Source: a virus. From it: a stretch of DNA of 36,750 bases. A model generated the notes under the pieces. The model was given only the letters and a program-made list of their open reading frames with translations, was not told the DNA's origin and ran no database searches. The stretch lies in the IMG/VR virus record IMGVR_UViG_3300009506_000108, positions 1-36,750 of that record; one strand, written 5' to 3'. Each line of letters begins with the position of its first letter. Within the stretch, counting starts at the first letter, position 1. This document shows, one piece after another, positions 1 to 34,943 of this stretch. A program made the position numbers and the translations under genes.

Positions 1-960
1 GACTTCTTCTCGATAAGTCTCAGCCTGAGCACCAGTCGTAGCTAATAAATCCTTTAAAGCTTCTAATCGACCTAAAACACCAAATAATCCTCTTGAATTC
101 CCCTCAAACACTTCTTTCAAGTGCATAAGGGTTGACATTAAACCTTTTTCTCTTAATTCCTTATGAAGATCAGCGTATGTTAAATTAACAGACTTCAATG
201 CTTCAACACCTCGATTAGTTTGCCGCGTCATAGCAGCAAACACTGAGGTCATCTGAGTAATAGCTTCAGAAGCTGGAACTCCTAACTTCGTCACTGTCGC
301 GAAGTTAGCGGCAACCTCTTCGAAACTCACACCCATCTGTGCTGCGAATGGAACAACATTCGCTAAGACAGGTGCTAAGTCTTTTGCTTCAGCACCACCA
401 TCTCGAATAGCGCGAGTTAATACATCTGCTGCGTGCGCCGCAGACATATTCTCTATACCGTAAGAATTGATAACCGCTGTTAATGCACGAGCAACAACAT
501 TCGTTTCACCGAGTCCTGCCGCAGATGCTTTAGCCGCAATATCTAAAATTTCCATTGCGGTCTTCGTATCGGCAACTGTCGAAGATACAGCGTACATACC
601 TTCGGCTAATGCGACTGGACCAATACCAACAGCAGGAGCTAAATCGAGGATGTGTTGCTTGACACCGGCGAGTTCTTCTTTAGTAACACCAGCGAGGGAG
701 ACTAACTTAGAAGTAACTGATTCAAAATCCCCACCAAACTTAAGAGAAGCAGCGGCAGCTCCAAGAATTGGCAGCGTGACCGCTGCCGTCATTACAGTTC
801 CAATTTGGCGGAGACCACGCCCAAATAATGTCAACTGATAAGTGGTCATCCCCATTGCATTGTTGAGACGACCAATAGATTTCTCTACATGAGCTATACC
901 TTCACTAGCTTCATCTTGAACACGAAAAACAGCGACTAAGTCACCGACATTAACCATCAT
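1..960 (-). CDS. Tail tape measure protein, N-terminal part (TP901-like), runs off the window
   Basis: This open frame of 320 codons starts ATGATG at 960 and is still open at base 1, so only the N-terminal part is present. The product resembles the core of TP901-family tape measure proteins. An early segment around LFGRGLRQIG is followed by a hydrophobic Ala/Val stretch, then repeated helical segments with 'SVFAAMTRQTNRGVEAL' near residue 245. Tape measure proteins set tail length and occupy the tail lumen before DNA ejection. The position directly after the frameshifted tail assembly chaperone is the classical siphovirus/myovirus order. Its ATG overlaps the TGA of the frameshift product (CCATGATG), so translation is probably coupled. 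Confidence 0.9.
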   Translation of the reverse strand, partial: MMVNVGDLVAVFRVQDEASEGIAHVEKSIGRLNNAMGMTTYQLTLFGRGLRQIGTVMTAAVTLPILGAAAASLKFGGDFESVTSKLVSLAGVTKEELAGVKQHILDLAPAVGIGPVALAEGMYAVSSTVADTKTAMEILDIAAKASAAGLGETNVVARALTAVINSYGIENMSAAHAADVLTRAIRDGGAEAKDLAPVLANVVPFAAQMGVSFEEVAANFATVTKLGVPASEAITQMTSVFAAMTRQTNRGVEALKSVNLTYADLHKELREKGLMSTLMHLKEVFEGNSRGLFGVLGRLEALKDLLATTGAQAETYREEV

Positions 961-2267: not shown

Positions 2268-3251
2268 CTAGTATCGCTTGAATCCTGTGAAAACTGTAAT
2301 CGTTCCTGAACCACTTACTGTGCCGGTTGAAGCTAAATATCTATCTACTGTACCACTAACCGTAATCCTTTCCTTCGCTGGAGCAGCGGTAATAGTAGAG
2401 AAGGTGATTAAAGTTGAATAAGTTATGTCATCGGGGCTGTCAGTAATTCGAACTACTACGTTTGTGAATCCAGCATACTGAGAGCACTGAAGATAACCTA
2501 CTCCTCCAGCGTTTGTACTGGTTCTTACGAAAGAACCACCTGTGCCTCCAATTGTAACGTTGACAGGAACAGTAAATGTATTCGTTCCAGTAACCGTCGC
2601 AGTATACTCACCATTAATTGTTGGAGTTGAACCAGTAACTCCAGAAATAAGAACTTTATCACCAGTCGTTAAACCATGCGGTGTCGTACACGTAACGACA
2701 GTTGGGTTAGCGACTGAGTTCGAGGTGATTTCTACAGGACGATTGGCGGTATCATCAGCTAAATCAACAGGGGCATCTGGGGCACCGGCTCCACCAGTCT
2801 TTGTATCCCAATCCGCAGAATATTGAGTGAGTTGCTGAACAATAACCCCTTCATCAACAGCACCAGAAACTAAGTAAGTGACATTAGCCTTGGTCAGCGC
2901 ATCGCGCGCATCCATGACATCATATTTCTGCGAATACGGTCCAGCAAATCCCATAAACGGAAGACCAGCAACATTCCCAAAAATAGCAGCACAGACAATA
3001 CGACTAACACCAACCACAGAACCAATAGCATTATGGAGAGCATCAGTGGTTTCATCGTAAATCCCTCCACCTGCCACTAATGTCCCCTTATCAATACCAA
3101 TAGGGGTATTTTCCTCGCTACCTTCTCCGAATGGATGGGTTTCTTCGGTAGTTACCTCGGATCCCATCGTAGCTCCATCCATTACAGCTGGAGCTAGATT
3201 ATACCCATCGACTAAAAGTACGGAGAAATTGGGACCTGCATATTTACTCAC
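2268..3251 (-). CDS. Tail tube-like protein, long paralogue with a C-terminal beta domain
   Basis: 327 aa from a GTG start (AAGGTGG upstream, overlapping the previous stop). The first 130 residues are homologous to the adjacent 142-aa protein (T-x-PFG...SEE-x-TPIGIDK). Around residues 185-240 there is a segment 'GLTTGDKVLISGVTG' followed by 'INGEYTATVTGTNTFTV'. That pattern resembles the small beta domain often annotated in phage proteins as E1 FCCH-like. The C-terminus (residues 245-327) looks like another beta sandwich. Such add-on domains are typical decorations on the outer surface of tail tubes. The role as tube protein is inferred from position and family resemblance. Confidence 0.6.
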   Translation of the reverse strand: MSKYAGPNFSVLLVDGYNLAPAVMDGATMGSEVTTEETHPFGEGSEENTPIGIDKGTLVAGGGIYDETTDALHNAIGSVVGVSRIVCAAIFGNVAGLPFMGFAGPYSQKYDVMDARDALTKANVTYLVSGAVDEGVIVQQLTQYSADWDTKTGGAGAPDAPVDLADDTANRPVEITSNSVANPTVVTCTTPHGLTTGDKVLISGVTGSTPTINGEYTATVTGTNTFTVPVNVTIGGTGGSFVRTSTNAGGVGYLQCSQYAGFTNVVVRITDSPDDITYSTLITFSTITAAPAKERITVSGTVDRYLASTGTVSGSGTITVFTGFKRY

Positions 3252-33362: not shown

Positions 33363-33391
33363 TTGCAATCTGGTTTTAAGTATGGTATACT
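33363..33391 (+). promoter_or_regulatory. Promoter of the tandem RNA / Ro60 locus
   Basis: TTGCAATC, 17-bp spacer containing GGTTTTAAG and ending ATGG, TATACT. Transcription should begin near 33398, 16 bp before the first structured RNA. Confidence 0.8.
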
Positions 33392-33413
33392 GGTTTGTAA
33401 GTTAGGTTGGAAC

Positions 33414-33499
33414 GGCGGCATGGTGTAGGACTTGGTTACTTCATCCATTGACATGAGCGGAGCGTAAGCTCCTTTCCAAGTTCGCCCTTTCCTGCCGCC
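33414..33499 (+). ncRNA. Structured RNA A, upstream of Ro60
   Basis: The outer stem is GGCGGC/GCCGCC and the second stem ACTTGG (33430-33435) with CCAAGT (33476-33481). An inner hairpin is GGAGC-GTAA-GCTCC (33459-33472). The unpaired segments TGGTGTAG, GGTTACTTC and TTTCC..YCTTTCC are shared with RNA B while the stems differ in sequence but keep pairing. This is covariation between two copies. A Y RNA-like partner for the Ro60 protein is the natural inference. Confidence 0.75.
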
Positions 33500-33510
33500 T
33501 TTCAAGTGTC

Positions 33511-33605
33511 GCGCCGTGGTGTAGAGAACGGTTACTTCTTGGCTAAAGAGCGGTTGGGTGAAACTCCCGACCATTTCCGTTCTCGCTCTTTCCCGGCGCT
33601 TTTTT
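33511..33605 (+). ncRNA. Structured RNA B, upstream of Ro60, ends in a terminator-like T-run
   Basis: The outer stem is GCGCCG/CGGCGC and the second stem GAGAACGG (33524-33531) with CCGTTCTC (33577-33584). The inner hairpin spans 33552-33572. Loop text TGGTGTAG, GGTTACTTC and CTTTCC match RNA A. The outer stem is followed by TTTTTT (33600-33605), so a transcript of both RNAs could end here, with some read-through into the Ro60 gene. A second pairing, AAAGAGCG with CGCTCTTT, is also possible (alternative fold). Confidence 0.75.
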
Positions 33606-33617
33606 GTGGAGTGACTG

Positions 33618-34943
33618 ATGCGTACCAATATTCGTGTGGTCAATTCAACTTTGAAAACCCATGAGGGTGCTCCAGCTGCCCACCTCACTCCTTTGAAGGA
33701 ACTCCGTAGGTCAGTACTTACGGCGCTTCTCTGGGAAAACCTCTTTTACGAGGGTGGTAAGGAACACGCGCAGCGTGTTCAGGACCTCGTAGCCCGCTGC
33801 AAGCCAGAGGATGTAGCTAATCTGGCTATCGAAGCCCGCGACTTGATGTATCTGCGTCATGTCCCGCTGTTCCTGGTTCGTCAGTTGGCGCGTATTAAGG
33901 GTAATGGTACGCTCGTGGCGTCGACGCTGGCGAATGTCATTCGTCGTCCAGATGAGCTTACCGAATATCTGGCAATGTATTGGGAGGGTGGTACGACGCG
34001 GCCCCGTCCGGAGCCTTTGTCGGCTGGCTCGAAGCGTGGGCTTGCCCGCGCCTTCAAGAAGTTCTCAGCCTACAGTCTGGCCAAGTACGATCGCGATACT
34101 GGGGTGAAGTTGCGCGACGTTCTCCGAATGGTTCACGCCAAGCCAACGGATGGCGAGGAATCGGCATTGTGGAAGCAGGTATTGGATCGTAGCTTGCCGA
34201 CTCCTGATACTTGGGAGGTCGCCCTCTCGGGCGGCGCGGATAAGCGCGAAGTGTTCGAGAGGCTCTTAGCTGAAAAGAAGCTCGGAGCACTCGCGTTTCT
34301 GCGAAACTTGCGTAACATGATCGAAGCCAAGGTGGACCCTGCTCTGATTCGAGAGCGGTTTGCCGGAAAGCTCGATCAGGTGTTGCCGTTTCGGTTCATC
34401 GCCGCAGTTCGTCATGCACCTGCATTCGCACAGGACTTGAATGACGCAATGTTGCGGGCAGTCGCAGATTACCCACGTCTGCCAGGACAGACGATTGTCT
34501 TAGTCGATGTTTCTGGGTCGATGACTTGTCAGTTGTCTGAAAAGTCAGATATGAATCGTATGGATGCGGCGGCTGGTCTGGCAGTTCTCATTCGTGAGAT
34601 TGCTCAGGATTGCCGTATCTTCACGTTCTCGCAGGACGTTGTTGAAGCACCTGCCTATCGTGGATTGGCATTGGTGGATGGGATCATCACGTCTCAGCCT
34701 TATGGTGGCACCTATCTTGGAGAGGCTGTGCGACGAATTCAGGCGCGGTATCCGCATGATCGGTTGATTGTGGTGACTGATGAACAGTCCCACGATGTGG
34801 TGCCGAATCCAAATAGGACTGGATATATGATCAATGTGGCACCTTACCAGCATGGTGTCGGTTATGGACCTTGGGTTCATATTGATGGTTGGTCTGAGCG
34901 CGTGATGGACTTCATTCGGGAATTGGAGGCAGAAGAGAACTAG
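33618..34943 (+). CDS. Ro60 (TROVE domain + vWA) RNA-binding protein
   Basis: 441 aa, with GGAG seven bases before the ATG. Residues 1-285 form the helical-repeat TROVE-type ring (e.g. 'DLMYLRHVPLFLVRQLARI', 'FLRNLRNMIEAKVD', 'VLPFRFIAAVRHAPAF'). Residues 292-441 are a von Willebrand A domain with an intact metal site: 'DVSGS' (297-301), Thr365 in 'GGTYLG', Asp388 in 'VVTDEQ'. Ro60 proteins bind misfolded RNAs in the central hole and Y RNAs on the outside. Bacterial forms act with exonucleases in RNA quality control. The three structured RNAs around this gene are candidate Y RNA partners. Confidence 0.9.
   Translation: MRTNIRVVNSTLKTHEGAPAAHLTPLKELRRSVLTALLWENLFYEGGKEHAQRVQDLVARCKPEDVANLAIEARDLMYLRHVPLFLVRQLARIKGNGTLVASTLANVIRRPDELTEYLAMYWEGGTTRPRPEPLSAGSKRGLARAFKKFSAYSLAKYDRDTGVKLRDVLRMVHAKPTDGEESALWKQVLDRSLPTPDTWEVALSGGADKREVFERLLAEKKLGALAFLRNLRNMIEAKVDPALIRERFAGKLDQVLPFRFIAAVRHAPAFAQDLNDAMLRAVADYPRLPGQTIVLVDVSGSMTCQLSEKSDMNRMDAAAGLAVLIREIAQDCRIFTFSQDVVEAPAYRGLALVDGIITSQPYGGTYLGEAVRRIQARYPHDRLIVVTDEQSHDVVPNPNRTGYMINVAPYQHGVGYGPWVHIDGWSERVMDFIRELEAEEN

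What the first reader, a model, noticed from the sequence alone, without database searches (positions are those of the whole stretch)
33414..33605. Tandem covarying structured RNAs in front of a phage Ro60 gene
RNAs A and B share the unpaired words TGGTGTAG, GGTTACTTC and CTTTCC, but their two main stems have different sequence and still pair perfectly (GGCGGC/GCCGCC vs GCGCCG/CGGCGC; ACTTGG/CCAAGT vs GAGAACGG/CCGTTCTC). That is compensatory change, strong evidence for selected RNA structure. The next gene is Ro60, whose known partners are Y RNAs. The conserved loops do not match a Y RNA type I recognise, so this may be an undescribed Ro60-linked RNA class, or a cis-acting leader.
Basis: partly seen in the sequence, partly recalled or inferred. 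Interest (0 to 1): 0.88.

Follow-up and report, generated by a model that had tools for sequence, protein, structure and literature searches.

The report
Tandem Y RNAs beside phage Ro60
The two structured RNAs in front of this phage's Ro60 gene are real: they carry the same module as the small 'Y RNAs' that sit beside Ro60 genes in bacteria, so the phage probably makes its own Ro60 RNA-protein particle, built from an RNA form that current databases miss.

Summary
RNA A (33414-33499) and RNA B (33511-33599) share one fold, their stems are compensatory, and the next gene (33618-34943) is a TROVE/vWA protein, Ro60.

The reading is half right: strongly Ro60-linked, but not a new RNA class. Their conserved part is a module found at 78 of 80 protein-retrieved bacterial Ro60 loci: outer stem / TGGYGNAG / 7-bp stem ending GG:CC / TACTTC ... 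CGNNNNTTCC / outer stem. All 14 base pairs covary. A model built without the window finds exactly A and B in it (E 5.6e-13, 1.8e-13). In 142 sampled alphaproteobacterial genomes it rang twice, both times beside TROVE. The word GGUUACUUC also occurs in the Deinococcus radiodurans Y RNA, a known Ro60 partner.

Many sister copies carry the YrlA-type tRNA mimic in the variable arm, including copy 2 of the closest relative. A and B do not, and Rfam misses them.

Best reading: phage Y RNAs that bind and gate phage Ro60. The module is shown by sequence; binding and function are inferred. In 8 of 69 viral loci the RNAs lie only downstream of Ro60, against a pure leader. A weak vault RNA match was followed and not supported.

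The parts
33363..33391 (+). sigma-70-like promoter TTGCAA-17-TATACT with TG before the -10; predicted start about 33398
   Evidence: 9 of 12 consensus positions; the scan finds about 1.4 such sites by chance in this region, so position rather than score is the argument
33414..33499 (+). Y RNA A: Ro60-binding-type module with a short hairpin apical arm (GGAGC-GTAA-GCTCC), no tRNA-like domain; stem may extend to 33407-33505 with a bulged C at 33413
   Evidence: (52.9 bits, E 5.6e-13, model without window copies)
33511..33599 (+). Y RNA B: same module, apical hairpin GGTTGGG-TGAAACT-CCCGACC, no tRNA-like domain
   Evidence: (54.6 bits, E 1.8e-13)
33600..33605 (+). T6 run directly after the closing stem of B: possible intrinsic terminator or RNA 3' end
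   Evidence: sequence; not listed by the simple terminator scan, which allows only short hairpins
33618..34943 (+). phage Ro60 (TROVE + vWA), 441 aa; GGAG ribosome-binding site 33608-33611; MIDAS motif D297-x-S299-x-S301; H173 and K156 align with human Ro60 H187 and K170
   Evidence: role of H187 in Y RNA contact from PMC4030889
33032..33118 (+). tRNA-Leu(UAA) gene upstream; neighbour, not part of the RNA pair

Best explanation
A and B are two tandem Y RNAs of the phage's own Ro60 particle. A promoter at 33363-33391 would make a transcript of about 200 nt that contains both RNAs and may read on into the Ro60 gene (inferred). Each RNA closes its 5' and 3' ends into a two-part basal stem with a conserved asymmetric internal loop, which is the part shared with Y RNAs beside Ro60 genes in bacteria (shown by sequence). 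Phage Ro60 would bind this basal module on the outside of its ring (inferred from the conserved Y RNA-contact histidine and from known Ro60 biology). The variable arm would decide what the particle does. In many sister copies it is a tRNA mimic, proposed to tether exoribonuclease PNPase or tRNA-handling enzymes; in A and B it is only a hairpin. So A and B most likely act as gates: they occupy and stabilise Ro60 and control which phage or host RNAs reach its cavity, rather than tethering a tRNA-recognising partner. Identity as Y RNAs of the phage Ro60: about 0.9; the gating role: about 0.5.
For: Model R1, built without window copies, finds exactly A and B in the window. All 14 pairs of the module show changes on both sides in 25 copies; 90.9% of cells paired versus 58.7% in shuffles and 33-48% when slid. 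With copies picked by words alone, stems pair in 82% (57 viral/plasmid copies) and 83% (154 bacterial copies) of cells versus 54% after swapping strands. 78 of 80 protein-retrieved bacterial Ro60 loci carry it (74, 4 more). Genome-wide specificity for TROVE neighbourhoods. Viral contigs found by words alone: 46 of 52 with TROVE. GGUUACUUC and the preceding AAG are in the Rfam D. radiodurans Y RNA consensus, and Rsr binds the lower stem of that RNA (PMC4726728). Closest relative L054 (Ro60 74%) has copy 1 like A and copy 2 with a YrlA-type tRNA module. Ro60 H173 aligns with human H187, a residue essential for Y RNA contact (PMC4030889).
Against: No binding or expression data exist. Rfam's Y RNA models do not match A or B, and RF01053 matches module-bearing relatives only weakly (15-19 bits), so the tie to the biochemically proven Y RNA rests on the shared word, similar geometry and Ro60 linkage. 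The gating role is extrapolated from D. radiodurans and animals. Six viral contigs carry a strong copy and no recognisable TROVE gene.
Confidence: 0.75

Rival explanations
1. Cis-acting leader: A and B act only as a 5' element of the Ro60 mRNA, for instance Ro60 binds its own leader and represses its translation.
For: They lie between promoter and start codon, B ends 18 nt before the ATG; copies are upstream of Ro60 on the same strand in 61 of 69 viral loci and 71 of 71 bacterial loci with copies.
Against: In 8 viral loci copies lie only downstream of Ro60; arrays of up to 6 copies with interchangeable tRNA-mimic arms fit separate RNAs better; known Y RNAs are separate RNAs. Autoregulation in addition to Y RNA function is not excluded.
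Confidence: 0.12
2. Members of an undescribed RNA class that is Ro60-linked but not Y RNA.
For: Rfam gathering scan finds nothing; neither Y RNA model reaches A or B.
Against: The same basal module carries the YrlA tRNA-like arm in many copies (12 of 18 relatives match RF02553 at E 2e-6 or better) and shares GGUUACUUC with the D. radiodurans Y RNA.
Confidence: 0.05
3. Vault-type RNA: the TROVE-binding part is shared with animal vault RNAs, whose protein TEP1 also has a TROVE domain.
For: Best Rfam match of B is Vault RF00006, full length, 18.8 bits, E 0.11; the vault consensus has GGUUACUUC after a 7-bp stem ending GG and a CGCUGUCC 3' loop; home-made profile score 25.2, reached by 0 of 1500 shuffles.
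Against: Below the 34-bit cut-off; A does not match; none of the 27 vault-model hits in 30 Ro60 genomes falls on a known Y RNA copy (positions compared by hand); the 5' word is not shared; vault UAGCUCAGCGGUUA is the Pol III box A, which alone explains part of the likeness.
Confidence: 0.04

Closest known systems
YrlA (Rfam RF02553), bacterial Y RNA with tRNA-like domain
   Same: Encoded beside Ro60/Rsr, ends closed in a basal stem, tandem copies known (Salmonella rsr-yrlBA-rtcBA, PMC7790460); sister copies of A and B carry this tRNA-like module.
   Different: A and B lack the tRNA-like domain; the basal stem words of the RF02553 consensus differ and the model does not find A or B.
Deinococcus radiodurans Y RNA (Rfam RF01053)
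   Same: Shares AAG - stem - GGUUACUUC on the 5' side and a 3' loop starting CG (consensus printed); bound by Rsr at the lower stem (PMC4726728).
   Different: 5' internal loop differs (CCGAAG versus TGGTGTAG), long apical arm; model does not reach A or B.
Vertebrate Y RNAs (Rfam RF00019)
   Same: Partner protein Ro60; lower stem made by the two ends with an irregularity that Ro60 reads.
   Different: Vertebrate site is a 7-bp helix with a bulged C9 and GGUCCGA (PMC4726728, PMC11277228); here it is a large asymmetric internal loop. No Rfam match.
Vault RNA (Rfam RF00006)
   Same: GGUUACUUC after a stem ending GG; similar overall size; partner of a TROVE protein.
   Different: Match below cut-off, not reproduced in other copies; part of the likeness is the Pol III box A.

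Membership tests
Y RNA (Ro60-associated RNA) | gene linked to a Ro60/Rsr gene | tested here: met
   Window: 18 nt before the Ro60 start; relatives
Y RNA (Ro60-associated RNA) | 5' and 3' ends form an interrupted basal stem under selection | tested here: met
   Covariation at 14 of 14 pairs; word-only selection 82-83% paired versus 54%
Y RNA (Ro60-associated RNA) | same Ro60-contact sequence as a biochemically proven Y RNA | tested here: inconclusive
   GGUUACUUC and AAG shared with the D. radiodurans Y RNA consensus, but the RF01053 model does not match A or B
Y RNA (Ro60-associated RNA) | physically bound by Ro60 | not testable with these tools
   Only indirect: Ro60 H173/K156 align with human H187/K170
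YrlA (RF02553) | tRNA-like domain (T arm, acceptor-like stem, D arm) | tested here: not met
   Window has only chance-level matches, 11.7-12.3 bits, not at A or B; A and B arms are simple hairpins
YrlA (RF02553) | scores above gathering cut-off (69 bits) | tested here: not met
   relatives with the tRNA-like arm reach at most 50.5 bits
Deinococcus Y RNA (RF01053) | match to the family model | tested here: not met
   No match at E up to 10
Vault RNA (RF00006) | match above gathering cut-off (34 bits) | tested here: not met
   18.8 bits for B only; no vault hits at Y RNA copies in 30 Ro60 genomes
Ro60 / TROVE protein | TROVE ring and vWA domain with MIDAS motif | tested here: met
   Pfam TROVE 40.4 bits, vWA matches just below cut-off; D297, S299, S301 invariant in 26 relatives; matches solved Ro60 and Rsr
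cis-regulatory leader | always upstream of and co-oriented with the regulated gene | tested here: not met
   8 of 69 viral loci have copies only downstream

The most novel reading that the evidence does not exclude
Minimal Y RNAs (basal module with only a short arm) are a phage tool in their own right. Six viral contigs of 13-82 kb carry one strong copy of about 66-70 nt and no TROVE gene, which would fit a trans-acting decoy or gate aimed at a Ro60 encoded elsewhere, such as the host's. The tRNA-mimic-free pair A/B would be the same tool kept together with its own Ro60.
Probability: 0.15. Interest if true: 0.8.

Novelty: new variant of a known kind. Interest (0 to 1): 0.55.

Why it matters
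Ro60 is a human autoantigen with bacterial orthologues, and most work on bacterial Y RNAs has followed the tRNA-mimicking YrlA. This locus leads to a sharp, testable consensus for a Ro60-linked module that spans phages, plasmids, Acidobacteriota, Alphaproteobacteria, Bacillota and Deinococcota. It makes Y RNAs findable where Rfam sees nothing, shows that the functional arm is swapped in and out on a constant base, and gives phage systems (for example Caulobacter phage CcrColossus, Xanthomonas phage Olaya, and with weaker RNA evidence the crAss-like phages) in which Ro60 particles could be studied. crAss001 transcribes its TROVE gene early in infection (PMC10136315).

Tried and rejected
Rfam gathering scan: only the tRNA-Leu. 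Vault RNA: followed because of TROVE = telomerase, Ro, vault, then not supported. First pattern with variable gap of 2-12 nt: only the gap of 5 is enriched (44 of 131 hits); other gaps are nearly all chance hits in coding DNA. A pure leader: weakened by downstream copies. PADLOC: no defence family for Ro60 or five neighbours. RtcA/RtcB-type RNA repair genes near the window RNAs: none among the ORFs scanned, but most small ORFs were not scanned and the contig may be incomplete. Chen et al. 2014 and the Sim and Wolin review on bacterial Y RNAs are not in the held library, so whether phage Y RNAs or this consensus were mentioned there could not be checked.

Full report
1. What is there. The window is a linear IMG/VR virus record with terminase, portal, scaffold and major head genes. 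Downstream of a tRNA-Leu(UAA) and a 74-aa ORF lies a sigma-70-like promoter, TTGCAA-17-TATACT, at 33363-33391, then RNA A (33414-33499), RNA B (33511-33599) with a T6 run, and 18 nt later a 441-aa gene with TROVE and vWA domains, that is Ro60. One correction: the GG of GGTTACTTC is paired.

2. It is a conserved RNA module. Scanning 2.9 million viral contigs with a DNA pattern that uses no protein information, GGTGTAG-N(2..12)-GGTTACTTC, gave 120 loci; only a gap of exactly 5 is enriched (44 of 131 hits), and nearly all Ro60 neighbours are at gap-5 loci. A structure-aware scan gave 113 hits against 6 in reversed sequence. In 80 bacterial Ro60 loci fetched by protein alone the module was found in 74 loci, 200 copies, against 3 in reversed sequence; the covariance model added 4 more loci. 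Copies chosen by words alone, with no pairing rule, still pair in 82% (57 viral/plasmid copies) and 83% (154 bacterial copies) of positions, against 54% when strands are swapped between copies. In a 25-copy alignment all 14 pairs have changes on both sides. The consensus is: outer stem of 6-7 bp; 5' loop TGGYGNAG; inner stem of 7 bp ending GG:CC; TACTTC; variable arm of about 11 to over 100 nt; 3' loop CGNNNNTTCC; outer stem.

3. It is tied to Ro60. The model R1, built without window copies, finds only A and B in the window (E 5.6e-13, 1.8e-13). In 12 bacterial genomes 24 of 26 hits lie within 2.5 kb of TROVE (the two others are on contig 24 of one genome). In 142 sampled alphaproteobacterial genomes R1 rang in 2, both beside TROVE (one of the two is the genome used as the centre of the sample), while TROVE occurs in 4. 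Two stricter word patterns brought 52 further viral contigs, 43 with Ro60 in the fetched locus and 3 more with TROVE elsewhere on the contig (L238, L239, L258). Copies on the Ro60 strand lie upstream only in 61 viral and 71 bacterial loci, downstream only in 8 viral loci. Loci are not all independent (repeated contigs, many Bradyrhizobium and Acidobacteriota).

4. It belongs with bacterial Y RNAs. In many copies the variable arm is a permuted tRNA-like module that matches Rfam YrlA (E down to 4e-12, below the 69-bit cut-off); by a simple T-arm/D-arm search 17 of 42 viral and 36 of 109 bacterial copies have it, and 16 and 27 have short arms. The YrlA model recognises that arm and does not align the basal module well, and it misses A and B, whose arms are plain hairpins. 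The Rfam consensus of the D. radiodurans Y RNA, whose lower stem is bound by Rsr (PMC4726728), reads ...CCgaAG-uGGuCaC-GGUUaCuuC..., the same word after the same kind of stem. In the closest relative (L054, Ro60 74% identical) copy 1 resembles A and copy 2 carries the tRNA mimic, so the window phage seems to have a hairpin where the relative has a tRNA mimic (inference).

5. The protein side. Phage Ro60 aligns end to end with solved TROVE-domain structures 9l5y and 9kop, and the profile of its relatives matches human, Xenopus and Deinococcus Ro60 in the later part of the chain. A weaker stretch of the same profile puts human K170 and H187 on phage K156 (invariant in 26 relatives) and H173 (at least 90%); H187 is reported as essential for Y RNA contact (PMC4030889). 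The MIDAS residues are invariant.

6. How it most likely works. Known Ro60 is a ring; Y RNAs bind its outside, are stabilised by it and gate access of other RNAs, and in D. radiodurans also tether PNPase (PMC4030889, PMC4726728, PMC8394870). By that analogy A and B are made from the promoter before them, are processed or folded as two RNAs, bind phage Ro60 through the basal module, and act as gates. Without a tRNA mimic they should not tether partners that read tRNA shape. Shown: module, covariation, linkage, conserved contact residues. Inferred: transcription, binding, gating. What the phage gains is unknown; protecting or clearing tRNA and rRNA fragments during infection is the reading I favour, in line with a review that places phage TROVE proteins among RNA repair functions (PMC7824862).

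7. Novelty. Phage TROVE genes are known (PMC7824862, PMC10136315, PMC12363180), and so are bacterial Y RNAs. I found no description of phage Y RNAs or of this module consensus in the held library, but key papers and reviews are not held. Hence: new variant of a known kind.

8. Vault lead. B's best Rfam match is vault RNA, an attractive thought because vault protein TEP1 has a TROVE domain. It failed the wider test: vault-model hits in 30 Ro60 genomes do not fall on Y RNA copies, although the bare consensus resembles the module more than 1500 shuffles do. Left as an open, unlikely possibility.

Noticed in passing
L228:2470-2535 -, L230:2574-2641 +, L232:2830-2899 -, L245:6669-6736 + (same sequence as L230), L262:9252-9320 +, L070:2041-2107 +: Solitary minimal copies of the module (50-59 bits) on viral contigs of 13-82 kb with no TROVE gene on the contig and no tRNA gene in the fetched locus: possible decoys for a Ro60 encoded elsewhere, or incomplete contigs.
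   Followed up: partly
OQ622092.1 20624-20691 (L131:2331-2398), NC_019406.1 109217-109284 (L132:1664-1731): Genes annotated as tRNA-Thr and tRNA-Gln upstream of phage Ro60 lie inside Y RNA copies; the tRNA-like module seems to have been misread as a tRNA. A tRNA-Ser in ON529850.1 (L134:2269-2343) may be a third case (weak model hit).
   Followed up: partly
L132, L133 (Caulobacter phages CcrColossus, CcrPW), L152, L169, L171, L214: Arrays of four or more Y RNAs before one Ro60 gene, with arms of very different length within one array.
   Followed up: partly
window 33407-33413 with 33500-33505: The stem of A can extend by 6 bp beyond a bulged C (33413), reminiscent of the bulged C9 of vertebrate Y RNAs; seen in one copy only, may be chance.
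   Followed up: no
G084 contig C24:4217-4463: Two model hits in an Asticcacaulis genome on a contig without a detected TROVE gene.
   Followed up: no
window 2268-3251 -: 327-aa ORF with a sub-threshold match to the ubiquitin-activating enzyme E1 FCCH domain (25.6 bits, cut-off 29.5), probably a structural look-alike.
   Followed up: no
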